Under the pieces are notes generated by a model, which saw only the letters and a program-made list of their open reading frames with translations, did no database searches and had not been told where the DNA came from. Position numbers and translations under genes: made by a program. Source: a virus. From it: a stretch of 64,000 bases of DNA. Below are positions 4,280-44,769 of the stretch, in pieces (positions within the stretch are counted from its first letter, which is position 1; every line of letters begins with the position of its first letter). The stretch is from positions 1-64,000 of IMG/VR virus record IMGVR_UViG_3300032893_000036; one strand, given 5' to 3'.

Positions 4280-4515
4280 TTCACGCTCCGGCTCACGAAG
4301 CCTGTGCGTTCGCACGCCTCAGCCAGCCTCATGGCAACCGCTGCGACTTGCAATGCCTCCGTCTGTATGCGGTCCATGCGGTTGCCATGGATGGCTTCGA
4401 TCAGCTCCTGATACTCTTCGGTCAGCACGCCGAGTGCCTCATGCGTCGACGCGAAGTCGCCATAACGGACTCGCGCGCGGTTCATTTCGTCGCTCAACTC
4501 TTCAGTCAGTATCAT
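4276..4515 (-). CDS. MazG-like / all-helical NTP pyrophosphohydrolase-like protein
   Basis: 79 aa. The segment VLTEEYQELIEAIHGNRMDR followed by EALQVAAVAMRLAEA resembles the ExxE and later acidic/His helix of MazG-type enzymes, which hydrolyse NTPs. The second metal motif (usually ExxD) is only partial, so activity is doubtful. It overlaps the SNF2-methyltransferase gene by 4 nt. Confidence 0.5.
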   Translation of the reverse strand: MILTEELSDEMNRARVRYGDFASTHEALGVLTEEYQELIEAIHGNRMDRIQTEALQVAAVAMRLAEACERTGFVSRSVK

Positions 4516-6713
4516 GGCGTGGTCACCTCCTCGAACAGTCCGCCCATGCTAGTACGCGCGAGTCGTAGATTCGCGCATGCCTGTTTGTAGTAGGACTCCT
4601 TCAGTTCCATACCGATGAACTTTCGGCCGTGCTGCAGAGCTACGTATCCAGTCGAGCCAATGCCGCTGAATGGATCTAGCACGGTGTCACCCGGATTAGT
4701 CCACAACTCAATGCCGCGCTCGATCACCTGCAGCTGCAGGGGACAGATGTGTCGCTCATCGGCCTGCTCGCGAGCGCTCCTGAACTGCAGCGTGTCTGAT
4801 GGATTGATATCGTGCCAAACAGGCGATGCGTATCGTTGCCACAATCCAACAGGGAACTCCTCCTCCGTCTTCGTCACACGCTCAGGGTTTTCACCTGGCT
4901 TGCGCATGGTCACGAGATAATCAGGAATTCCCTGCCGCGACATCGCAGAATCTTTTTTTAGCTGCTTGTACAGCAATCCGAGTGCCTTGGTGCGTTGCAT
5001 AGCCGTCACTGGGTCTTTCCATATGACGACCTCGCTGTGATAGATGAATCCGGCAGCTTCGAACAGTCGGATCAGATCGCCGCGGAAGTCTCGGATGCCA
5101 ATGTATCCGTTATTGACTTTGCTGGTAGGTAAATTCATGCAGTGGAACGACAGCAGTCGACCGGGAACCAAAACTCGATACAACTCGCGCACGAGAAACT
5201 CAAAATGTGCCGTAAATTCCTCGATATTCTTGCAGTTCCCCATGTCGCGATCCGATGCGCTATACGTGTATAGCGATGCAAATGGCGGACTAAAGCACGA
5301 ATAGTGCACAGACTCATCCATCAAGTTCCTAATCAACTCCACAGAGTCACCGAGTTTCATGGTCCAGTTCTCACCCGACTGCTCGTCCTGCTTGTAATCG
5401 TTCATAACTCGGTGAGTCCCTCGTATGTTGGCATTCATTTGGTCTCGCATGTGGATAACGATGTTGTCTGCCATGACTGTAGCTGCGGCTTCCTTGTCTT
5501 TAATGTTTTTGAGCACTGCGCCTTCAGTGGCGGCCACGATCAGGTGCACGTCGACGGGTTTAATTTGGCCAAATCGCCATGTACGTCTAACAGCCTGATA
5601 GAATTGCTCCCAGCTGTCGGAGAGCCCAACGAACGCCTCGTTGTGGCAGTGTTGCCAGTTTAGGCCATACCCACAAATTGAACTTTTACTCACTAGCACG
5701 CGAGCTGATCCATCCGTGAAGGCGCTGAGTGCTTTCTCCTTCTTTTGGACAGAATCCGATCCAGTCACTTCGATGGCGCCTGGGATAGCTTTAGCAAGCG
5801 CCTGCGACTCGGCATTGAGGTTGCACCATACGACCCACGGCTCACCACTCGCATTCACTAGTTCAGCGCACTGCGCCACACGCTCGTCAATGGTGTCGCG
5901 CCGCGCGGCAATGCGCTCCTGAAGCGTGGATGCCTCAAGGGCGAACAAATGACCGGGCGTCGGCCGATCGACGCGCAGCACATGCTCATGCATGCGCAGC
6001 GGCGGCAGTTTGAAATCTCCGTCGTCATAGCCCAAGTCGGACGGCTTGCGCAGCACGACGGCCCACGAAGCGAGCCATCGCCAGAAGTCCTGCTCGGCGT
6101 GCCCCTTTAGCCGCCACGATTGAGTCTCGCCGCCGTCGTGCACAAAAAACATTGAGAGCATCTCGACGCGAGTCATGACGCCTAGGAATTCAGCATGGTT
6201 GCCGAGTTCCATGTAATCGTTGGGCGCAGGGGTCGCCGTGCATGCCAGCTTGAAGCGGGTATTCTTGAAGTCTTGAATGATCCGCGTGCGCGTCTTGCCG
6301 TCGTAAGACTTTAAGATGCTGGACTCGTCCAACACGACGCCTTCGAAGGTGCTTGGCTCAAAGTGCACGAGCATTTCGTAGTTGGTGATGTTGATTCCGG
6401 GCTGTGTATCCGCTTGTGTGCGGCACAGAGTAACTGGAATTCCGAAGCGTGCGCCTTCCTTCACCGTCTGCGCGGCCACTGCAAGTGGTGCCAAGATCAG
6501 CACGTCTCCAGGGATGTGACGTGCCCATTCTAGCTGTTGAAACGTCTTGCCGAGCCCACAGTCCTCGAACAGTGCCGCACATCCTCGCTTGAGCGCCCAC
6601 CGAACGATGTCACGCTGGAATGGAAATAAATCCGCATGGAGCTCTGGAATATCAAATAGCCCCGTTGGCTTGGCAACGACAGACTTGCGCTGCAGGAAGT
6701 CTTGATAGCTCAT
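4512..6713 (-). CDS. SNF2-type helicase fused to a beta-class DNA methyltransferase
   Basis: 733 aa. Residues about 25-430 form an SF2/SNF2-like ATPase: DCGLGKT (51-57, Walker A), LDESS (DExx, 128-132), TATP (159-162) and QAVRRTWRFGQ (motif VI, 373-383). Residues about 450-730 are a DNA methyltransferase with catalytic SPPF (475-478) before the SAM motif DPFSGIGS (near 680), the order of beta-class N6-adenine or N4-cytosine enzymes. A single chain that translocates and methylates recalls Type I/III or ISP restriction enzymes, but no nuclease domain is present. It could protect phage DNA from host restriction. The ATG at 6713 is chosen for its GAGGGT SD; a TTG at 6749 overlaps the upstream stop. 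Confidence 0.88.
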   Translation of the reverse strand: MSYQDFLQRKSVVAKPTGLFDIPELHADLFPFQRDIVRWALKRGCAALFEDCGLGKTFQQLEWARHIPGDVLILAPLAVAAQTVKEGARFGIPVTLCRTQADTQPGINITNYEMLVHFEPSTFEGVVLDESSILKSYDGKTRTRIIQDFKNTRFKLACTATPAPNDYMELGNHAEFLGVMTRVEMLSMFFVHDGGETQSWRLKGHAEQDFWRWLASWAVVLRKPSDLGYDDGDFKLPPLRMHEHVLRVDRPTPGHLFALEASTLQERIAARRDTIDERVAQCAELVNASGEPWVVWCNLNAESQALAKAIPGAIEVTGSDSVQKKEKALSAFTDGSARVLVSKSSICGYGLNWQHCHNEAFVGLSDSWEQFYQAVRRTWRFGQIKPVDVHLIVAATEGAVLKNIKDKEAAATVMADNIVIHMRDQMNANIRGTHRVMNDYKQDEQSGENWTMKLGDSVELIRNLMDESVHYSCFSPPFASLYTYSASDRDMGNCKNIEEFTAHFEFLVRELYRVLVPGRLLSFHCMNLPTSKVNNGYIGIRDFRGDLIRLFEAAGFIYHSEVVIWKDPVTAMQRTKALGLLYKQLKKDSAMSRQGIPDYLVTMRKPGENPERVTKTEEEFPVGLWQRYASPVWHDINPSDTLQFRSAREQADERHICPLQLQVIERGIELWTNPGDTVLDPFSGIGSTGYVALQHGRKFIGMELKESYYKQACANLRLARTSMGGLFEEVTTP

Positions 6714-6745
6714 GTGCGCACCCTCGCACACCAGCAGCGCGAGAG

Positions 6746-8143
6746 TCAAGCGGATTTTTTTGCGGCCCGCGCGGCAAGCACATGCCGAGCTCTGCCGAGA
6801 AGGTCCCCCTTGTATCCACGGTGCCGAAATATCTCGGCCAGTTGCTCCGGCGTCGTCGCCTTTGACTGCTCGAACGCGAGCCGCCGCTTCTCCTGCCGCC
6901 GTGCCACTTCCTCCGGAGTAATTTCAGCGAGCTTGCCCTCCCGCTGCTCTACCTCGCGCGGCTTCGGCACAAATAGATATCCACACTCCGGACACTTGCG
7001 CGCAGCGGACTGCATCGCGGCCCAACAATTGGGGCAGACTTTGACGGAGGTGGCTTTTTTCTTTTTCGGCTGGTCCTCACCGTTGAGAGTCCACGGCGTC
7101 GCGCGGTCCCAGTGTGGCAAACCAAAGCGCTCCCAGTTACGACAGTGATCGAAGATCCAAGCGCGCTCTTTGCCAATCTCGGGCCGCAAAATACGTCCGC
7201 ACTGCTGGCGGTAGATCACTTCGGACTGCGTGGGGCGCAGCATGATTCCAACGTGCACGCCGGGGCAGTCGAAGCCTTCGCTGAACAGATCGCAGCTCGC
7301 GAGTAGCGTGATCTTTCGGTCGCGGAAATCCTTCACGACGCCCCGGCGAATCTCGCGATCCGTGCCGCCGTCCAGCGCCATGGCCGAATATCCCGCGTCG
7401 CGGAATTGTTTCGCGACATCGTGCGCATGCTGCACTGACACGCAGAACGCGAGCGCCGGCAGTCCATCGGTCTTGCTGCGGTACATCTCGAGCGCGCTGC
7501 CTGTGATGGCGGGTGTGTTGACCAGTTCCTCGGATTCGCTGGTGACGAACTCGCCGGCTCGCGTGTGTAGTCCGCTGGTATCGACGGTCTCAGGCCCGAA
7601 GACAATCGGCGGCGCGAGCCATCCGCCTGCGATGAGCTCAGCCGGCGAAGGACCTACGATCAGCTTGTCGAATATGGTGCCGAGTCCCTCACCTGATGGG
7701 CGCATGGGCGTCGCGGTCACTCCAAGTAGCTTCGCATTCGGCCAGTGTCGAATGACCGACTCCCAGGTCGCGGCGCGCGCGTGATGGGCCTCGTCGATAA
7801 TGATCAAGTCGGGCGCAGGCGTTTCGCCGAGGCGGCGGACGAGGGTCTGGATGTTGGCGACATAGGTTAGTGCTGATCGCTTGGTATAGCCTGCAGCGAT
7901 ATAGCCATGATCGACACCCGCGTTGGCGAGTGAACCAGATATCTGGTCAACGAGCTCAATGCGGTGCGTGAGAATGAGTACGCGGTTGCCTTTGGCCTGG
8001 GCACCGTACGCGATGTGGCTGAAGATGACGGTCTTGCCGCCGCCAGTTGGGAGCACGTACAGCGGGGCGCGGCAGCGATCAGGGCCGAACGCTTGGCGTA
8101 TGCGCGCGATGCCGTCGAGCTGGTAGGGGCGGAGGGTGATCAC
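6746..8143 (-). CDS. DEAD/DEAH-box SF2 helicase with C-terminal zinc ribbon
   Basis: 465 aa, GTG start. Motifs in order: PYQLDGI (Q-like), PTGGGKT (32-38), DEAH (117-120), TATP (143-146), and QQCGRILRP (motif VI). Near the C-terminus VCPNC and KCPEC form a four-Cys zinc ribbon. It resembles the helicase part of type III restriction enzymes and phage-encoded UvsW/RecG-like proteins used in replication restart or recombination. No nuclease motif is visible. The intergenic palindrome at 8217-8232 lies just upstream. Confidence 0.88.
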   Translation of the reverse strand: MITLRPYQLDGIARIRQAFGPDRCRAPLYVLPTGGGKTVIFSHIAYGAQAKGNRVLILTHRIELVDQISGSLANAGVDHGYIAAGYTKRSALTYVANIQTLVRRLGETPAPDLIIIDEAHHARAATWESVIRHWPNAKLLGVTATPMRPSGEGLGTIFDKLIVGPSPAELIAGGWLAPPIVFGPETVDTSGLHTRAGEFVTSESEELVNTPAITGSALEMYRSKTDGLPALAFCVSVQHAHDVAKQFRDAGYSAMALDGGTDREIRRGVVKDFRDRKITLLASCDLFSEGFDCPGVHVGIMLRPTQSEVIYRQQCGRILRPEIGKERAWIFDHCRNWERFGLPHWDRATPWTLNGEDQPKKKKATSVKVCPNCWAAMQSAARKCPECGYLFVPKPREVEQREGKLAEITPEEVARRQEKRRLAFEQSKATTPEQLAEIFRHRGYKGDLLGRARHVLAARAAKKSA

Positions 8144-12555: not shown

Positions 12556-12771
12556 ATGACGGAAAAACTACCAGAATTTAGCCTGTGCCTGCCCACAGCC
12601 GAGGACACCGCAATTTTTTTGAAATTGCGTGCTCGCAATCTCTGGCCTATCGACAGAGATTTTTGTGATTTCGCGATGCTGCGGGTGTATTGGGCGGATG
12701 GTGGAGCTGCGCGGGATGGCGCCAACATTTTTGACTGGAACCAACAATTCATGGAATCGTTGCAGCCATGA
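12556..12771 (+). CDS. 71-aa hypothetical protein
   Basis: Starts MTEKLPEFSLCLPTAEDTAI with an upstream AACGGAGA. Aromatic-rich C-terminal half (YWADGGAARDGANIFDWNQQ). Overlaps the next gene by 4 nt. Function unknown. Confidence 0.55.
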   Translation: MTEKLPEFSLCLPTAEDTAIFLKLRARNLWPIDRDFCDFAMLRVYWADGGAARDGANIFDWNQQFMESLQP

Positions 12772-12941
12772 TTCCTATCTGTTCTCTCTGCCGCCAACTA
12801 CTCGACGTGACCGCTCCTCACGCTATCGTCAACCACGATTACGCGCATCTGGATTGCGCGGACGAATTCGATTCGCGTGATCTGGGCAGCATCGACTTGC
12901 CGGATGATCGGGAGCCGATCGAAGAGGAGGACGCGCGATGA
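12768..12941 (+). CDS. 57-aa Cys/His zinc-binding type protein
   Basis: Starts MIPICSLCRQLLDVTAPHAI; the C-x2-C and a later HLDC could bind one zinc ion, and the tail is strongly acidic (DDREPIEEEDA). ATGA overlaps at both ends. Function unknown. Confidence 0.5.
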   Translation: MIPICSLCRQLLDVTAPHAIVNHDYAHLDCADEFDSRDLGSIDLPDDREPIEEEDAR

Positions 12942-16342: not shown

Positions 16343-16523
16343 TTGGAAGCGTGGTTTGCCTCCGGGAAAATACTACGAAGGCATGACGGACGATTACGAG
16401 GTGCAATTCACCGTGGGCGGCCTTAAGTGGCACCGGAAGCGTACACCTGAAGAAAAGGCCGCCCATATCGAACTCAAAAGGCGACTCGGTCCACAGCACG
16501 GAGCGGCTCATGGGCGAGAATAG
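16335..16523 (+). CDS. 62-aa hypothetical protein, GTG start
   Basis: Starts at GTG (MDDWKRGLPPGKYYEGMTDD), overlaps the previous gene by 8 nt and the next by 14 nt. Charged; contains KWHRKRTPEEKAAHIELKRR. Function unknown. Confidence 0.5.
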   Translation: MDDWKRGLPPGKYYEGMTDDYEVQFTVGGLKWHRKRTPEEKAAHIELKRRLGPQHGAAHGRE

Positions 16524-17364
16524 TGCCATCGAGTGGACCAACCACACATTCAATCCGTGGGTCGGCTGCACGAAGATCAGTCCCGGCTGCGATCACTGCT
16601 ACGCGGAAGGCTGGGCAAAGCGCAGTGGCATGGTCGAATGGGGTGGATCTCGCGTCCGAACGTCTATCGCCAACTGGAACAAACCTCTTAAGTGGAATCG
16701 TGACGCCGCGGCAACCGGGATTCGTAGGCGCGTGTTCTGCGCTTCCCTTGCGGACGTGTTCGACAACGAGGCTGACTCTCTGTGGCGCGTCGATTTGATG
16801 CGACTGATTGAGCACACGCCCCATCTTGACTGGCTGTTACTCACCAAACGCATTGGGAACGTGGCAGGCATGATGCACAATTGGCACGAGAGCAACTGGC
16901 CGCGCAACGTCTGGCTGGGAATCACTGTCGTCAACCAGGAGGAAGCCGATCGAGACATACCGAAGTTGCTTCGTATCCCCGCTGCGGTCCACTTCCTGTC
17001 GATTGAACCCATGCTCTCGATGATTTCATTGGACGCGGAGCAGTGGCTGGTCCCGGAGTACTTCGGCCACGCGGCAGACTGTCATGACCCACTGTGTGCG
17101 CTCAACGGCGATATGTATTCGTGTGCGGGCGAAGTCATTCAACAGCCTTCGATTGATTGGATTATCTGCGGCGGCGAGAGCGGCAGTCATGCGCGGGAGA
17201 TGAATCCCGATTGGGCGCGTTACCTGCGCGAGCAGTGCAAAGACACTGGTACGGCGTTCTTCATGAAGCAGATGACCGGGAAGGCCGAAATTCCAGCTGA
17301 CTTGCTTGTCCGCGAGTTTCCGACACCTCCTACATCCAACTCTGCTCCATCGGAGAAACCATGA
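16510..17364 (+). CDS. Phage Gp37/Gp68 family protein (DUF5131), radical-SAM-like
   Basis: 284 aa. The N-terminus AIEWTNHTFNPWVGCTKISP with GCDHCYAEGWAKR gives the family's Cys cluster (C-x6-C-x2-C), resembling a radical-SAM iron-sulfur site. Further hallmarks are RVFCASLADVFDNEA, LLLTKRIGN, WLGITVVNQEEADRDIPKLL, LSIEPML and IICGGESGSHAREMNPDWAR. The family is common in phages and prophages; its reaction is not firmly known. Length matches family members (about 250-300 aa). Confidence 0.9.
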   Translation: MGENSAIEWTNHTFNPWVGCTKISPGCDHCYAEGWAKRSGMVEWGGSRVRTSIANWNKPLKWNRDAAATGIRRRVFCASLADVFDNEADSLWRVDLMRLIEHTPHLDWLLLTKRIGNVAGMMHNWHESNWPRNVWLGITVVNQEEADRDIPKLLRIPAAVHFLSIEPMLSMISLDAEQWLVPEYFGHAADCHDPLCALNGDMYSCAGEVIQQPSIDWIICGGESGSHAREMNPDWARYLREQCKDTGTAFFMKQMTGKAEIPADLLVREFPTPPTSNSAPSEKP

Positions 17365-20205: not shown

Positions 20206-20468
20206 CAAATTTATGCGACGTCTGCGGGAAACCCGCAACTCAATCGATGCTGAAGGATCCTTTCGGCAAGTCCGATGCATTGCGCTTTGTATGCGGTGAA
20301 CACGGTTTCCGCATTCGGGATCCTGCGGACGTTGCCGAGATCGAACGCCTGCGCGCTGAGAATGCCGCACTAATCCGCGACAATGAGGCACTCTACGATG
20401 CCAACACAAGCCTAGTGAACGAATTGGCAGGCGGCGGACTCGATGCCGAACCGGAGAAGACGCCGTGA
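20202..20468 (+). CDS. 88-aa zinc-finger plus coiled-coil protein
   Basis: MTNLCDVCGKP and FVCGEHGF supply C-x2-C and C-x2-H, followed by a coiled coil (VAEIERLRAENAALIRDNEA). A zinc knuckle with a leucine-zipper-like helix is typical of small dimeric DNA- or protein-binding factors. Function unknown. Confidence 0.6.
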   Translation: MTNLCDVCGKPATQSMLKDPFGKSDALRFVCGEHGFRIRDPADVAEIERLRAENAALIRDNEALYDANTSLVNELAGGGLDAEPEKTP

Positions 20469-21556
20469 CGAAGAAGGAAGTCGAATGCAGACACGACAGA
20501 TTGGAGGCGGAAGAGTCTGGGCAGTATTGGTGCCCTGAATGCGACAGTCGTTTTCAAATAGTGCCTGCTGCCAAATCAGAACAAGCCGTGACAAATCAGA
20601 AATTCAAGGAACTCCCGGAGCTTGAGATTGAGGGACTGAATGCGTGGCTGATTTCGGAAGAGTCTCTTGTTGCGATATTGCAGGAAGGACACGATTTTTA
20701 TATGAGTTTGGACGTTGAGTCTGCTCGGAAAGTACACGCGTGGCTTGGCGAGGCTCTGTCACATCTCGAACCGGAGCAGCGGAACGAGGACTGTCCTGAT
20801 GGCGAGCATGATTGGGGGGCGTATTTCTGTCGCCGTTGCGGACGTTCCGTCGTTTTGAGAGCAGCGGCCGAACCGAGAGCGCCTCAAGCGCCCATTGCGA
20901 AGATCACCGTACGGGAATCTGGCGCTGGGCACTACGCACCGGATGAAGTGTCGGTGAGTTTTTACGCTCCCGGTCTGCCCCCAGGTGACCATGACGTGTA
21001 CTGCGAGCCGATGTCTGTGGCACCCGCTCTGAAAAGTTTCCAGGCTAGGGATTGCGACGATAGCGGTCAGCGGGCTGACGAATCCGCTGCGTGTTCGGGC
21101 ACGTCTAGCCACCCGTTCGATGACGCTCTGCGATGGCGTGCCTTCAAAGAGATGCACGTGAGTAACGTGCTACACATGATAGCTAGCGGTACAGACAATT
21201 ACGATACCGCAGTTGATGCTGTTAGAGTCGCGGCGAAATCCGAACCGGAAGTAATTCTTCCGTCCTTTCGAGAGATGAAGGGTATTTTGGCGGAGAAATC
21301 CTCCCCCGCCGACCTCGTGGGCGCCCTACAGGACCGACTACCGGACCTTGAGCAACGAGCGGTGCGGGCCGGTCGGTCGGTCAAATGGAACTGCGCGTGC
21401 AACGATCTGTCATGCGCTTACTGCGGGCCACGACTCGCACAGAAATCGAACTCAGCTCCATCGACCTTCACCCGAGAATGTGCCCGGTGCGGGAAGCCTG
21501 GGCAGGCAACGAGAACCGATGGAGTATTTTACTGTTCAATCGAGTGCGCGGATTGA
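20465..21556 (+). CDS. 363-aa multi-zinc-ribbon protein
   Basis: GTG start. Four Cys clusters: WCPECDSRF (N-terminus), FCRRCGRSV, CACNDLSCAYCGP and ECARCGKPG/FYCSIEC (C-terminus). In between lie a helical SF-like stretch and a beta part VRESGAGHYAPDEVSVSFYA. The layout suggests a scaffold with several zinc ribbons. It is the largest unassigned early gene. Possible fusion of several short zinc-finger genes like those just upstream (inference). Confidence 0.6.
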   Translation: MTKKEVECRHDRLEAEESGQYWCPECDSRFQIVPAAKSEQAVTNQKFKELPELEIEGLNAWLISEESLVAILQEGHDFYMSLDVESARKVHAWLGEALSHLEPEQRNEDCPDGEHDWGAYFCRRCGRSVVLRAAAEPRAPQAPIAKITVRESGAGHYAPDEVSVSFYAPGLPPGDHDVYCEPMSVAPALKSFQARDCDDSGQRADESAACSGTSSHPFDDALRWRAFKEMHVSNVLHMIASGTDNYDTAVDAVRVAAKSEPEVILPSFREMKGILAEKSSPADLVGALQDRLPDLEQRAVRAGRSVKWNCACNDLSCAYCGPRLAQKSNSAPSTFTRECARCGKPGQATRTDGVFYCSIECAD

Positions 21557-21605
21557 ACGAGCGACTACAAGCGAGAACCTGAGCGAGTCAATTTAGGAGT
21601 TGTAC

Positions 21606-21848
21606 ATGTTTCACGTAAAAGACGGCCTATTCTTCAAACGCAATGACGACGGCAGTGTGACCGTCCTGAAGACGAGCGACGGCAAGGAGCCAACGGACTC
21701 CAACGTGTCATTCACTGAGACCTTGGACGACGGCTCATGGTGTTCCGCCGTACTGAGCATGTCGGCATTCAGCGAGCGGCCGTGGAGACTGGCATGCCTG
21801 GATGCGGCATCCTGGCCGTTACTACGTCGTGGCGCAGCAGGAGAATAG
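21606..21848 (+). CDS. 80-aa hypothetical protein
   Basis: AGGAG SD before ATG at 21606 (MFHVKDGLFFKRNDDGSVTV). Short beta-rich protein. The Trp/Arg-rich end may follow a small frame change relative to relatives; cannot be judged here. Last gene before the 0.64-kb gap. Confidence 0.5.
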   Translation: MFHVKDGLFFKRNDDGSVTVLKTSDGKEPTDSNVSFTETLDDGSWCSAVLSMSAFSERPWRLACLDAASWPLLRRGAAGE

Positions 21849-21868
21849 TCAATGAAGTTAAGTAGATA

Positions 21869-21887
21869 GGCCGCGCCCGGCGCGGCC
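21869..21887. other. GC-rich stem-loop
   Basis: GGCCGCGC-CCG-GCGCGGCC, a perfect 8-bp stem with a 3-nt loop, 20 bp after the last rightward gene of this block. No T-run follows, so it is not a classical intrinsic terminator, though it may stop 3' exonucleases. Confidence 0.5.
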
Positions 21888-21896
21888 ATAAGAGCT

Positions 21897-21943
21897 GGGA
21901 GTGGCAAGAGGCTAGTTTGACGGCCAGTGCTCTTGCCACTCCC
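21897..21943. other. Long perfect inverted repeat, 14-bp stem
   Basis: GGGAGTGGCAAGAG (21897-21910) and CTCTTGCCACTCCC (21930-21943) are perfectly complementary around a 19-nt loop. Could be an RNA stem-loop (transcription end or processing site) or a protein-binding site. No U-run follows on either strand. Confidence 0.6.
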
Positions 21944-21982
21944 CTCACCGGATCACACAGCGAACGCGGCGCGATTGGTGAC

Positions 21983-22132
21983 TCAAGAGTGATTATCTTG
22001 TTTTTCCCTCTTCGCAGCAAGGTCGAGCAGGTTCTCAAAGTCAGCCCTGTGACTTGAAGCAGATTGCGTCTGCTTTACCTTTCTCTGCTTTTTCAGAGGC
22101 TTACCGTGTTCCTGTCGTTTCTGTTTGGGCAT
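21983..22132 (-). CDS. 49-aa basic microprotein
   Basis: ATG reading starting MPKQKRQEHGKPLKKQRKVK and ending RADFENLLDLAAKREKQDNH S. Basic N-terminus plus an amphipathic helix is a common pattern in short bacterial proteins. There is no clear SD and it is the only minus-strand reading in the gap. It overlaps the candidate structured RNA. Confidence 0.35.
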   Translation of the reverse strand: MPKQKRQEHGKPLKKQRKVKQTQSASSHRADFENLLDLAAKREKQDNHS

Positions 22133-22309
22133 GTCGCTTGAGCGGGGTACGCAGGTTGCCGCCTAGGCCTCCTAAACCGTCGGCGCGGGGCTCGACTCCC
22201 CGGTACTCCACTATACGCCAATAGCCGTTATCTAAGAGGCGTCCCAGAACACAAGAAGAAATACGGCTTGCACACGTCGTTCCCCCTCTTAGAGCCGATC
22301 TGCTTCAAG
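22053..22309 (+). ncRNA. Candidate structured RNA closed by a 14-bp helix
   Basis: CTTGAAGCAGAT (22053-22064) is perfectly complementary to ATCTGCTTCAAG (22298-22309) and the helix extends two more pairs. Inside lie the tRNA-like fold (22144-22210) and two crossing helices, AGCCGT/ACGGCT (22223-22228 with 22263-22268) and TCTAAGAGG/CCTCTTAGA (22231-22239 with 22285-22293), which would form a pseudoknot. A competing local hairpin uses 22057-22075. No recognised RNA family; strand taken from the neighbouring rightward genes. Confidence 0.35.
22144..22210 (+). other. tRNA-like element with an abnormal middle
   Basis: GGGGTAC (22144-22150) pairs with GTACTCC (22203-22209) to give a 7-bp acceptor stem with one G-U, followed by discriminator A. 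CGGGG-CTCGACT-CCCCG (22186-22202) is a perfect T-arm with a seven-base loop. The D-arm is short (AGGT/GCCT with a 4-nt loop) and the CTCCTAA anticodon-like loop has only two good stem pairs. At 67 nt it is shorter than functional tRNAs; no CCA is encoded. It may be a decayed tRNA, a tRNA mimic or an attachment-site relic. Confidence 0.4.
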
Positions 22310-22343
22310 GCAGCCAATCCCAAGCCCGCTTGGAATTATCTGA

Positions 22344-22378
22344 CCGCCAAAATTGGCGGGGCCGCAAGTAGCGGCCCC
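22344..22378. other. Two overlapping hairpins
   Basis: CCGCCAA-AA-TTGGCGG (22344-22359) and GGGGCCGC-AAGTA-GCGGCCCC (22358-22378) share two bases, so only shortened forms can coexist. They end the structured part of the gap and may mark the 3' end of an RNA; no U-run follows. Confidence 0.5.
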
Positions 22379-22485
22379 AAGTAAAACCTACCCCTGCCAC
22401 TGTAGACAGGATCAGTCCTACCCAATCATTTTACCGCCGATCACGAGTATGTCAATCGTAGTACAAACGCTGCTAAGATATTGGA

Positions 22486-22650
22486 GTGAAAGAGGAAAAG
22501 TCCGATAACCTGGAAGCGTTCTCATGTCGTTTGGAGCGTGAGCAAATAAGCTTTATCGAAGACCTCACGGCGCGTCGCGTGCTGGGTTCAAACAAGAATG
22601 TAGTGCTGAGAGCATTGATTAGTTTCGATGAGTCCGAAGAATTCGACTGA
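22486..22650 (+). CDS. 54-aa ribbon-helix-helix-like DNA-binding protein, GTG start
   Basis: Reading GTG AAA GAG: KEEKSDNLEAFSCRLEREQI, then SFIEDLTARRVLGSNKNVVL RALI. A beta strand (AFSCRLE) followed by two helices with a GSNKNVVLRALI turn matches the Arc/CopG fold. TAAGAT at 22474-22479 lies 6 bp before the GTG and could be a -10 for a leaderless message, as in some phage repressors. Possible regulator of the block that follows. Confidence 0.55.
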   Translation: MKEEKSDNLEAFSCRLEREQISFIEDLTARRVLGSNKNVVLRALISFDESEEFD

Positions 22651-22679
22651 TAGAGCCGCTCTGCGTCGAGGATGAAGTC

Positions 22680-22877
22680 ATGAGCGAACCAAGCTGCGAG
22701 CACAGTAACCTGCCGGGTGGCATGGGTTGTGTGATGTGCGAGGCCATCTCGTTCCGCGCTCACCAGCAATCACTCACAGGCTGCAGGTGCATCTACGATC
22801 GATGGAACAATCTTCTGAGCCCAGGAGGATGCCCGGTTCATGACCCTCGACTACGTCCTAGCGGAGATCGTCGATGA
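22680..22877 (+). CDS. 65-aa Cys-rich hypothetical protein
   Basis: MSEPSCEHSNLPGGMGCVMC, LTGCRCIYD and GGCPVHD provide six Cys and two His in zinc-binding spacing. ATGA overlap with the next gene. Function unknown. Confidence 0.5.
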   Translation: MSEPSCEHSNLPGGMGCVMCEAISFRAHQQSLTGCRCIYDRWNNLLSPGGCPVHDPRLRPSGDRR

Positions 22878-23056
22878 GCGAGTTTATCTGGAACGCAAAC
22901 AGTTCCTTCGAGCAGATATTGCTAGAACGCTGGCATGATCAGTATCAGCGCGCTCTTAAAACGATCGCGGACGCAGACCCGCTATGTCCACGGGGATTGC
23001 TACAGGAGGTAGCCAGAGAAGCGTTGGAGAAGCTGCGGGACCCGACTACCGGCTAG
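22874..23056 (+). CDS. 60-aa helical hypothetical protein
   Basis: MSEFIWNANSSFEQILLERW, then WHDQYQRALKTIADADPLCP; helical throughout. ATGA overlap with the preceding gene. Function unknown. Confidence 0.5.
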   Translation: MSEFIWNANSSFEQILLERWHDQYQRALKTIADADPLCPRGLLQEVAREALEKLRDPTTG

Positions 23057-23073
23057 CGGAGGATAAAGTCCCT

Positions 23074-23262
23074 ATGGACATTGAAAATGCCAAAAGGATC
23101 GTGGATTACATCACTGACCCCAATGGCGGCCCTCACACGAAGTTGGCTTATCCTTGGGGTGATGAAGGAGGGTGGCGCTTGGACGACACGTTCACGGCTG
23201 ACCAGTTGGAAGCGATCTGCATAGTCATGCGAGCAAGTGCCCGCGGACACTCAGCTCAATAG
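23074..23262 (+). CDS. 62-aa hypothetical protein
   Basis: Starts MDIENAKRIVDYITDPNGGP, with GGATAAAG upstream. Last gene of the rightward block; its last 12 bp overlap the end of the leftward lysis operon (convergent genes), with no terminator between them. Confidence 0.5.
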   Translation: MDIENAKRIVDYITDPNGGPHTKLAYPWGDEGGWRLDDTFTADQLEAICIVMRASARGHSAQ

Positions 23263-23562
23263 CTTGATGGCGTTCTGAGCGCGGGCAAGGTCTCCGGCTA
23301 AAGCAGCCTCGCAATGCCCCTTCTGCAACCCGTTCAGCATACGGTGCAGTAATGCCCAGAAGGCCGGCGGGTTCCCCTTTCGCCAATAAAGCCCGCACTG
23401 GCTTGAGATGGTGATGTCGAAGTCCCGACTCCACAGGACGGAGACGAAGTAGTCGAAGGCGAGCAGGGTTTTGCCCACATAGGTCTTGCCGGCAAGCCTG
23501 TTGATAATTACTAGAATGGCCAACACCATGAGGATGACGAAGATGGCCAGGGCAATGATCAT
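23251..23562 (-). CDS. Membrane-anchored lysis-cassette protein
   Basis: 103 aa starting MIIALAIFVILMVLAILVII (ATGA overlap with the i-spanin stop). One N-terminal membrane helix, then a soluble domain with SRDFDITISSQCGLYWRKGN and a helical end. It is the last gene of the late operon. A lysis-accessory or superinfection role is suggested by context only. A longer reading to 23619 would run into the spanin. Confidence 0.6.
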   Translation of the reverse strand: MIIALAIFVILMVLAILVIINRLAGKTYVGKTLLAFDYFVSVLWSRDFDITISSQCGLYWRKGNPPAFWALLHRMLNGLQKGHCEAALAGDLARAQNAIKLLS

Positions 23563-24062
23563 AGCTGCGGGGTTATTTCGGCGATGAGGGCTTGGAGCCG
23601 GTTGGCGTTTCGCCGACACTCGTCGCGGGCGGCGACAAGAAGTTCTCCAGCGCGGTCAATGCCTGGGTCTCCGGGGGAAGTAACAGTTGCGGGTCTACTA
23701 CCGGTTTTCGGCATTCCACCATTTGCGGCGGTTCGGGCTGCTTCGGCTGCGAGCAGCTGCTCGAGGCGATGCAGACGCACAATAGTAGCGTCGCGGTCGG
23801 CAGCATTTTGGGCGTTTTGGTTAGCAAGGGTCACCATAGCGGCTTGGTTGTTACGGGTCGTCTCCTGCGCCTGCGCCAGCTGCGCTAGGAGCGTCTTTCG
23901 CACTGTTTCCTCTGCTTGGGTGCGGGCCAGTGCATCCGAGGTCTGCAGAGCCTGATAGCGCGCCTGCCAGGGGTTCAGATGGTAGCCGGCCCAACCTCCC
24001 AATCCCAGGAGGACAATCGCGCCGGCGACCCAGGGAGCGAACTTCAATAGCAAAGCGGTCAC
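23559..24062 (-). CDS. Rz: i-spanin (Rz-like)
   Basis: 167 aa: N-terminal membrane helix (LLLKFAPWVAGAIVLLGLGG), then a long helical periplasmic part rich in Gln/Ala (QAEETVRKTLLAQLAQAQET). It carries another gene (o-spanin) embedded in a different frame, the hallmark of Rz/Rz1. i-spanins pair with the outer-membrane lipoprotein to disrupt the outer membrane at the end of infection. Confidence 0.85.
   Translation of the reverse strand: MTALLLKFAPWVAGAIVLLGLGGWAGYHLNPWQARYQALQTSDALARTQAEETVRKTLLAQLAQAQETTRNNQAAMVTLANQNAQNAADRDATIVRLHRLEQLLAAEAARTAANGGMPKTGSRPATVTSPGDPGIDRAGELLVAARDECRRNANRLQALIAEITPQL
23573..23827 (-). CDS. Rz1: o-spanin lipoprotein (Rz1-like), nested in Rz
   Basis: 84 aa in a second frame wholly inside the Rz gene. 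MLTKTPKMLPTATLLLCVCI and IASSSC form a signal peptide with a lipobox-like Cys, then a Pro-rich mature chain (PKQPEPPQ, DPQLLLPPETQ), the standard Rz1 composition. The lipobox is weak (S-S-S-C), so the cleavage site should be tested. An internal ATG at 23806 is also possible. Confidence 0.82.
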   Translation of the reverse strand: MLTKTPKMLPTATLLLCVCIASSSCSQPKQPEPPQMVECRKPVVDPQLLLPPETQALTALENFLSPPATSVGETPTGSKPSSPK

Positions 24063-42853: not shown

Positions 42854-44769
42854 GGTGACGTGTCCCAAAGAGACGGGTTGACCAACGGCGTAACGAAGCC
42901 GCTATTTGCATTGACTAGTGCGGTAATAGATGTTGTATTCAAACAGATACTCGTCTGAAAATTCCATATCATAGATTTCGCACCATATCCGGTATGTGCT
43001 CCATGTGTAGTCAATGATTTCCGGGTCATCGTATCATCGAAGAATGCTTGATTAGATCCACTTGGCGGTGGGCACCCGGAGAAATTGGATCCGGTTCCCA
43101 TACCCTGTCCTTCACAATTATTTGTCGTATTTGCACTATCCCGAATGTCACCCAGAGACCCACTCACGCCCGCAATCAAATTCTGAAACGTGTTCGCCCA
43201 TTGCGTCGAATGAGTGCCATAACACGCGGGATCTGGACCACCATACAGAATGCCTGATGGATAGGCGCTATTCATCGATGTGTAGAAGTCTTGTAATCCA
43301 TCAATCTCTTGTGTGCCACCATCACTTGGGTAGTAAGACATCGGTGCCCATAGAGTGCGCCGAACGGTCCGGCTGCTCATGTTCGCCGCCAAGTTAAGAT
43401 GCAGTGTCTTGAACTGCGAAATGTAATTCGCGGCCGAGCAGATTGGTTTTCCGTTTATATCAACATTTGCGGTCTCTGATTCATCGGCAGTCATTAGCCT
43501 GTCAACGCGGATATCGGTATCCAGACTATCGATAACATCCAACATGCCGGTATACATCTCTTGCAGTCTTGACCAGACTACCGGATTATCATTTGCGAGT
43601 TGACCGCGGCCAGCCGTATTGGGCTGGATGAATACCTGAACCATCGCTGGGCTGGCGCTGATGACCCAAGAAGGCCACATGGCAGTATCATTTACTTTGG
43701 CGGTAGAGAGAACGAATTGACCGTCTGCACCAATTCCGGGAGAACCGTCGAGCGTGATAGTAGTCGATGTTGAAGATAGAACATTGCGAGTATTTCCACC
43801 GCAAGAACAGATCTTGCCTCCAGTACCAACACTGCCGAATCCGGTAGTTAGTGTAATCGTATTCCCGCTTACAGATGTCGCATTTCCGATAAATGTCGAA
43901 TAGAACGCCCCTTGCCAAAATTCGACATCAAGATAGATCTTCTTCGTCGTGCGAGCACGAAGCGTAGTTAGAACGTCAGTTAGATTGGTGCGGAAAATAT
44001 TGAATGTCTGGGCTCCTCCAGTCAGTGTTGGATCGCTGATATTTGCCCATGTGAAAATGATCTTCACGCGATTAAAGAAGTTCGAAGTATTGGCAATGAT
44101 TCCTAGATTGCTATTGAAATCGGCTCTCTGATTGCTCTGAGGGCTGATCGTGTAGAAAGGATTGTTGAACCAGGCGCCGTGTCCTGGATGAAACTTAGGC
44201 AGAGTGCCGGTAGCTGACTGCGTCGTACCGGTTACTGGACCACTTTGTGCACCTTCACCGAATGAATTACTCCCCGATACGTTGTAGGTATAACTGGTGG
44301 ACGCAGTAAGACCGGTATCCGTCGTTGATGTTCCCGCAATGCCGGTCTGTACTTTAGTACCATTGCGATACAGGTTGTACGTGCTTGCGCCCCCGACTGG
44401 CGCAGTCCAACTGAGCGACACCGACGAACTCGTGGTCCCCGTGACCGCGAGTCCCGTCGGCGCATTCGGTACCGCACCCGTGGTGCCTGTCGTCTGATTG
44501 CTTCTTGAGCCCTCGCCGAGTGGCTTCACGCCAGTCACGTAGTACGTATACGAAGTACCCGGCGTGAGGCCCGTATCGGTGGTGGCCGTTGATACAATCC
44601 CGCTCTGTACCTGAACGCCATTTCGGTACAGGTTGTACGTGCTTGCGCCCCCAACGGGCGCAGTCCAACCCAACGACACCGTCGACGTCGTACTGCCGGT
44701 CACCGCCAAACTGAGCGGCGGATTCGGCAGTGGTGAGCCGGTCGATTTCTGTCCTGGGAAACTAGCCAC
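42850..44769 (-). CDS. Adhesin/depolymerase with two fibronectin-III domains and a glycosidase-like region
   Basis: 639 aa. Residues ~15-190 hold two FN3-like domains with near-identical WTAPVGGASTYNLYRNG repeats 86 residues apart (258-bp period in DNA). The remainder (from ~200) resembles a beta/alpha-barrel (FTWANISDPTLTGGAQTFNI, KKIYLDVEFWQGAFYS, RVDRLMTADESETANVDING). Acidic residues at YLDVEFWQ and ADESE are candidate catalytic groups. FN3 modules are common in phage adhesins as spacers. Polysaccharide cleavage is inferred. Confidence 0.68.
   Translation of the reverse strand: MASFPGQKSTGSPLPNPPLSLAVTGSTTSTVSLGWTAPVGGASTYNLYRNGVQVQSGIVSTATTDTGLTPGTSYTYYVTGVKPLGEGSRSNQTTGTTGAVPNAPTGLAVTGTTSSSVSLSWTAPVGGASTYNLYRNGTKVQTGIAGTSTTDTGLTASTSYTYNVSGSNSFGEGAQSGPVTGTTQSATGTLPKFHPGHGAWFNNPFYTISPQSNQRADFNSNLGIIANTSNFFNRVKIIFTWANISDPTLTGGAQTFNIFRTNLTDVLTTLRARTTKKIYLDVEFWQGAFYSTFIGNATSVSGNTITLTTGFGSVGTGGKICSCGGNTRNVLSSTSTTITLDGSPGIGADGQFVLSTAKVNDTAMWPSWVISASPAMVQVFIQPNTAGRGQLANDNPVVWSRLQEMYTGMLDVIDSLDTDIRVDRLMTADESETANVDINGKPICSAANYISQFKTLHLNLAANMSSRTVRRTLWAPMSYYPSDGGTQEIDGLQDFYTSMNSAYPSGILYGGPDPACYGTHSTQWANTFQNLIAGVSGSLGDIRDSANTTNNCEGQGMGTGSNFSGCPPPSGSNQAFFDDTMTRKSLTTHGAHTGYGAKSMIWNFQTSICLNTTSITALVNANSGFVTPLVNPSLWDTSP

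What the first reader, a model, noticed from the sequence alone, without database searches (positions are those of the whole stretch)
22053..22309. Possible structured RNA with tRNA-like module and pseudoknot
A 12-bp perfect (14-bp with wobble) long-range helix closes a 257-nt segment. Inside are a tRNA-like acceptor/T-arm and two crossing helices (6 bp and 9 bp) that make an H-type pseudoknot. A 12-bp inverted repeat in a 600-bp gap is unlikely by chance. AAGCAGA can also pair locally with 22069-22075, so two folds compete (switch-like).
Basis: partly seen in the sequence, partly recalled or inferred. Interest (0 to 1): 0.62.

Follow-up and report, generated by a model that had tools for sequence, protein, structure and literature searches.

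The report
Decayed phage tRNA gene remnant
The feature is most likely the worn-down remains of a phage tRNA gene (alanine-type stem and T-arm) in a stretch without clear genes; the larger folded RNA with a pseudoknot proposed around it is not supported, so it looks ordinary.

Summary
The 12-bp closing helix (22053-22064/22298-22309) is exact, but 64-kb shuffles hold 0.9 such pairs on average. Crossing helices like the "pseudoknot" occur in 54 of 317 real 637-nt windows. The 257-nt segment folds no better than about 9-15% of random segments of this phage; without the closing helix it is less stable than its own shuffles on the + strand. No trace of the region was found in 33 related phage records, so covariation cannot be tested. 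The tRNA-like module (22144-22210, + strand) is real. Its acceptor stem, T-arm and discriminator match phage-type tRNA-Ala(UGC) genes at 30-31 of 32 positions, including the G3-U70 pair. The only three pattern matches in the viral and genome collections are all tRNA-Ala genes. Its core is broken: 2-bp anticodon stem, 3-bp D stem, C at position 54, CTA instead of CCA. ARAGORN and the Rfam tRNA model do not call it. Best reading: a relic of a phage tRNA gene. Interest is low.

The parts
22144..22150 (+). acceptor stem, 5' strand (GGGGTAC); pairs with 22203-22209, G-U at position 3-70
   Evidence: same strand in three phage-type tRNA-Ala genes
22153..22164 (+). reduced D-arm-like hairpin (3 bp, 6-nt loop)
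   Evidence: pairs read; the minimum-energy fold pairs this stretch differently
22166..22178 (+). anticodon-arm remnant: loop CTCCTAA (CCU at the anticodon place), stem reduced to 2 of 5 pairs
   Evidence: register fixed by distance to the T-arm; similar loop and 3' stem in phage tRNA-Arg(CCT) genes of L183-L186
22186..22202 (+). T-arm, 5 bp, loop CTCGACT (C in place of T at position 54)
22203..22213 (+). acceptor 3' strand, discriminator A, then CTA where CCA is encoded in L187 and L188
22053..22064 (.). left arm of the 12-bp inverted repeat (also pairs locally with 22069-22075)
   Evidence: chance-level for 64 kb
22298..22309 (.). right arm of the 12-bp inverted repeat
22223..22268 (.). 6-bp helix 22223-22228/22263-22268 of the proposed pseudoknot
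   Evidence: such crossings are common
22231..22293 (.). 9-bp helix 22231-22239/22285-22293 of the proposed pseudoknot
   Evidence: such crossings are common

Best explanation
The real feature is a 67-nt relic of a phage tRNA gene on the + strand (22144-22210), lying between two + strand early genes of a tailed phage. Shown: its acceptor stem, T-arm and discriminator are nearly identical to those of phage-type tRNA-Ala(UGC) genes, with the G3-U70 pair, while the D-arm, anticodon stem, T54 and CCA end are eroded. Inferred: if transcribed with the early genes, the acceptor/T-arm helix would still form and could be cut by RNase P, but the RNA could not decode. The long 12-bp helix and the crossing helices around it are most likely chance pairings in a stretch without clear genes. 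Whether the core eroded by mutation or arose by recombination between tRNA genes of an array is not known.
For: A pattern of 21 fixed bases from T-arm plus acceptor hits 2 viral contigs, and one of 23 fixed bases hits 1 genome contig. All 3 of 3 hits lie in ARAGORN tRNA-Ala(TGC) genes, two of them in large tRNA arrays. 30, 30 and 31 of 32 acceptor/T-arm/discriminator positions are identical, and core lengths are 39, 37, 37 and 35 (window). The module descriptor has 1 hit in the window and 42 hits in 602 shuffles, about 0.07 per window. ARAGORN finds no gene, the Rfam tRNA model no match at E<=10 in the record. Relatives of this phage carry tRNA genes: ARAGORN hits in MW202675, G026, G031, L098, L102 and L125.
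Against: All 12 acceptor and T-arm pairs are intact, which random decay need not give, although that is also how the module was recognised. Phage tRNAs with poor cores exist: L188's tRNA-Ala scores 30.5 bits and L189's is not listed at E<=1, so a low tRNA score does not prove loss of function. Only one copy is known, so selection cannot be tested. Closing helix and crossing helices together are rare in shuffles of this gap, 3 of 4000.
Confidence: 0.66

Rival explanations
1. A functional, highly reduced tRNA or tRNA-like RNA: it keeps the alanine identity (G3-U70, A73) and could be charged by host AlaRS as a minihelix, then act as decoy, processing signal or odd decoder (CCU).
For: 12 of 12 acceptor/T-arm pairs kept and G3-U70 present. 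Nearest tRNA-Ala genes also have short cores. L102, a contig of a relative, holds a 67-nt tRNA-Trp-like gene with encoded CCA that ARAGORN and Rfam miss.
Against: Anticodon stem 2 of 5 pairs, C54, CTA for CCA, U8 absent; below every tRNA model used.
Confidence: 0.16
2. One structured non-coding RNA of about 257 nt or more, a phage ornate RNA enclosing a tRNA-like part.
For: 12-bp helix encloses the tRNA relic; both long-range features together in 3 of 4000 shuffles of the gap. GOLLD RNAs can hold a pseudo-tRNA (PMC6582537, passages) and lie near tRNA islands (PMC12286853, passages).
Against: Stability ordinary, inner part z +1.17 on +; no Rfam match at gathering score and only sub-threshold matches; absent from relatives.
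Confidence: 0.09
3. The transcribed strand is the minus strand: a promoter at 22455-22428 drives a leader of about 290 nt and a 49-aa basic protein (ORF 21983-22132), the helices being leader structure.
For: TTGACA-16-TAAAAT, 11 of 12, the only such site in 20400-23700 and the only 16-nt-spacer match with up to 2 mismatches in the window. Codon score of the ORF lies between coding and spurious sets. Minus-strand fold slightly lower, z -2.15.
Against: Promoter-like sites are at or below chance numbers. No Shine-Dalgarno-like sequence before the ATG (read). No homologue of the protein.
Confidence: 0.06
4. The phage attachment site (attP): a tRNA 3' half matching a host tRNA gene.
For: The 3' half has standard tRNA spacing while the 5' half does not.
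Against: The acceptor 5' strand is present too. No Pfam tyrosine integrase in the record. 0 matches of the anticodon-loop-to-T-arm pattern in genome contigs.
Confidence: 0.03

Closest known systems
Phage-type tRNA-Ala(UGC) genes of tRNA arrays (L187, L188; L189 in Micromonospora sp. CPCC 205371)
   Same: acceptor stem GGGGTAC/GTACTCC with G3-U70, T-stem CGGGG/CCCCG, discriminator A: 30-31 of 32 positions
   Different: window core is 35 nt against 37-39, anticodon arm broken, anticodon not UGC, C54, CTA instead of CCA (L189 too lacks encoded CCA)
mascRNA-menRNA (Rfam RF01684)
   Same: best Rfam match: tRNA-like with small arms and intact acceptor/T-arm, 22.9 bits
   Different: below the gathering score of 42.5; by the family's description from MALAT1/MEN beta transcripts; no sign of relation beyond tRNA shape
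GOLLD / ROOL ornate phage RNAs
   Same: phage non-coding RNA near tRNA genes; GOLLD can enclose a pseudo-tRNA (PMC6582537, PMC12286853, passages read)
   Different: no Rfam match here; sizes and folds not matched

Membership tests
tRNA (functional) | 7-bp acceptor stem and 5-bp T-arm in register | tested here: met
   12 of 12 pairs, one G-U
tRNA (functional) | T-loop TTCRANY with T54 | tested here: not met
   loop is CTCGACT
tRNA (functional) | paired anticodon stem (5 bp) and D-arm | tested here: not met
   2 of 5 anticodon-stem pairs, 3-bp D stem
tRNA (functional) | recognised by tRNA models | tested here: not met
   ARAGORN 0 genes; Rfam RF00005 no match at E<=10; with permissive settings ARAGORN gave only a '???' candidate near here and an intron-split tRNA-Gly
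tRNA (functional) | transcribed, processed, charged | not testable with these tools
   needs infected-cell RNA
tRNA-Ala type | G3-U70 pair in the acceptor stem | tested here: met
   22146-22207 G-T; identity role from PMC6451123 (abstract start in the search listing)
tmRNA | match to tmRNA models | tested here: not met
   ARAGORN 0; permuted-tmRNA model only 8.1 bits, gathering 47
GOLLD / ROOL | Rfam covariance match | tested here: not met
attP site | integrase gene in the phage and identical host tRNA 3' half | tested here: not met
   tyrosine integrase only, host unknown
structured RNA with conserved fold | covariation in relatives | tested here: inconclusive
   no relative examined carries the region

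The most novel reading that the evidence does not exclude
A new phage RNA in which a tRNA-Ala gene was stripped to the part AlaRS and RNase P recognise (acceptor plus T-arm) and built into a larger RNA closed by the 12-bp helix, with a pseudoknot beside it: an alanine-chargeable or processing module inside an ornate non-coding RNA.
Probability: 0.06. Interest if true: 0.6.

Novelty: new member of a known kind. Interest (0 to 1): 0.17.

Why it matters
It shows that a lone tRNA remnant too worn for ARAGORN or the Rfam tRNA model can be recognised by an exact acceptor/T-arm signature and traced to phage tRNA-Ala genes. It also shows how easily long inverted repeats and crossing helices arise when 64 kb are read by eye. 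If the element still worked it would be an unusually reduced, alanine-type tRNA-like RNA.

Tried and rejected
tmRNA, one-piece or permuted: rejected on ARAGORN and Rfam. attP: no tyrosine integrase and no matching host tRNA. Intron-split tRNA: a permissive ARAGORN run on a 277-nt piece gave a tRNA-Gly with intron, not pursued because its span does not match the acceptor found here. First comparison with phage tRNA-Arg(CCT) on the anticodon loop was superseded by the far closer tRNA-Ala acceptor/T-arm match. Homologous region in relatives: 0 of 33 records below E 0.02; the 13 hits at E<=10 (in 6 of 33 records) are 12-21 nt long. I read the sequence at 4 of those 13 places and saw no tRNA-like element there. 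In G024, the nearest relative with local synteny, the interval between shared genes shows no DNA similarity worth naming. A module hit in G024 (44257-44333) does not look like a tRNA and is probably chance. The 49-aa minus-strand ORF has no homologue. Searching for relatives with the 692-aa and 363-aa proteins found none in viral contigs, and the 363-aa one none in phages. Literature: listings only, and passages of two papers; no claim is made that such relics are unreported.

Full report
What was checked. The window belongs to an IMG/VR virus record of 67,220 bases. Its genes are those of a tailed phage: portal, virion proteins, ejection protein, endolysin, Rz-like spanin, helicases. The site lies in a 637-nt gap between two + strand ORFs, 21600-21848 and 22486-22650.

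Is it more than chance? For the long helix, no. Shuffles of the 64-kb window hold 0.90 perfect 12-bp repeats with a 150-350-nt gap on average; 59% of 602 shuffles hold at least one, and the window holds one. Restricted to the 637-nt gap it is less common, 26 of 4000 shuffles, but the gap was picked after reading 64 kb. For the pseudoknot, no: a helix of at least 6 bp crossed by one of at least 9 bp occurs in 54 of 317 real 637-nt windows and 249 of 4000 shuffles of the gap. Both features together are rare, 3 of 4000 shuffles and 3 of 317 real windows, two of those three windows overlapping the site. In 83-nt segments the crossing was seen in 1 of 600. Folding energy does not: z is -1.59 on + and -2.15 on -, and 15% and 9% of 240 random segments are as low. 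Without the closing helix the inner part has z +1.17 (+) and -0.09 (-).

The tRNA-like module. A descriptor (5-bp T-stem, loop NTCRANN, 7-bp acceptor, 30-59 nt between, at most two G-U) finds one hit in the window and 42 in 602 shuffles, about 0.07 per window (0 in 12 shuffles). The decisive evidence is sequence. T-arm plus acceptor as a pattern of 21 fixed bases hits two viral contigs; 23 fixed bases hit one genome contig. By my own arithmetic under 0.01 chance hits are expected for the latter in 257 billion bases. All three hits lie in tRNA-Ala(TGC) genes, two of them in arrays of 25 and 32 ARAGORN-predicted tRNAs. Of the 32 acceptor, T-arm and discriminator positions, 30, 30 and 31 are identical. 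The single wobble pair is G3-U70, the alanine determinant (PMC6451123, abstract start in the listing). The cores differ entirely.

Why a relic. The window copy has a 2-bp anticodon stem, a 3-bp D stem, C54 and CTA after the discriminator, where L187 and L188 encode CCA. ARAGORN and the Rfam tRNA model do not see it; the best Rfam match is mascRNA-menRNA at 22.9 bits, under its gathering score of 42.5. Against this, one of the three tRNA-Ala genes (L189) is also not listed by Rfam at E<=1, another (L188) scores only 30.5 bits, and all 12 acceptor/T-arm pairs are kept. A reduced but working tRNA-like RNA is therefore not excluded, and I give it 0.16.

Relatives. The portal protein finds 50 related loci and the annotated phage MW202675. 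I searched 33 records (the contigs of 32 of those 50 loci, and MW202675) with the 631-nt region: best E-value 0.02, the 13 listed matches 12-21 nt long. The nearest relatives, G003 and G024, share the structural genes; G024 shares genes on both sides of the site, but no similarity worth naming was found within. The region 14.3-23.5 kb is thus an accessory stretch, and covariation cannot be tested. tRNA genes occur in relatives: tRNA-Gln in G026 and G031, tRNA-Met in MW202675 and L098, two tRNA-Gln in L102, tRNA-Leu in L125 (L111 belongs to G026).

Other readings. A minus-strand leader of a 49-aa protein has a good promoter-like site but no Shine-Dalgarno sequence and no homologue, and codon scores are undecided: 8% of 238 spurious ORFs score as high and 16% of real 50-codon chunks as low. 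attP is unlikely. GOLLD RNAs can enclose a pseudo-tRNA (PMC6582537, passages) and lie near tRNA islands in phages (PMC12286853, passages), so an ornate RNA around a tRNA relic has a precedent; no Rfam match supports it here.

Verdict.

Noticed in passing
L102:12932-12998 (minus), near tRNA-Gln genes at 12760-12835 and 12849-12922: A 67-nt tRNA-Trp(CCA)-like gene with a very short D-loop and encoded CCA that neither ARAGORN nor Rfam lists; a tRNA-Ser-like stretch with long variable arm seems to lie just upstream.
   Followed up: partly
L188:13433-13504 and L189:2359-2428: tRNA-Ala(TGC) genes with the same acceptor and T-arm but unusually short or irregular cores; reduced tRNA-Ala cores may recur in phage-type tRNA arrays.
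   Followed up: partly
window 22428-22455 (minus): Near-consensus sigma-70 promoter-like site TTGACA-16-TAAAAT facing into the gap, followed by a small terminator-like hairpin at 22411-22392.
   Followed up: partly
window 21897-21943: Perfect 14-bp inverted repeat with 19-nt loop just after the + strand ORF 21600-21848, next to a 9-bp GC-rich hairpin at 21869-21887; function unknown.
   Followed up: no
window 4512-6749 (minus): ORF matching helicase families in its first part and DNA methyltransferase families in its second, beside a second helicase-like ORF 6746-8143.
   Followed up: no
window 16510-17364 (+): Protein of phrog_2045, annotated in some phages as Gp37Gp68/DUF5131 family or radical SAM, with 156 phage records matching.
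   Followed up: no
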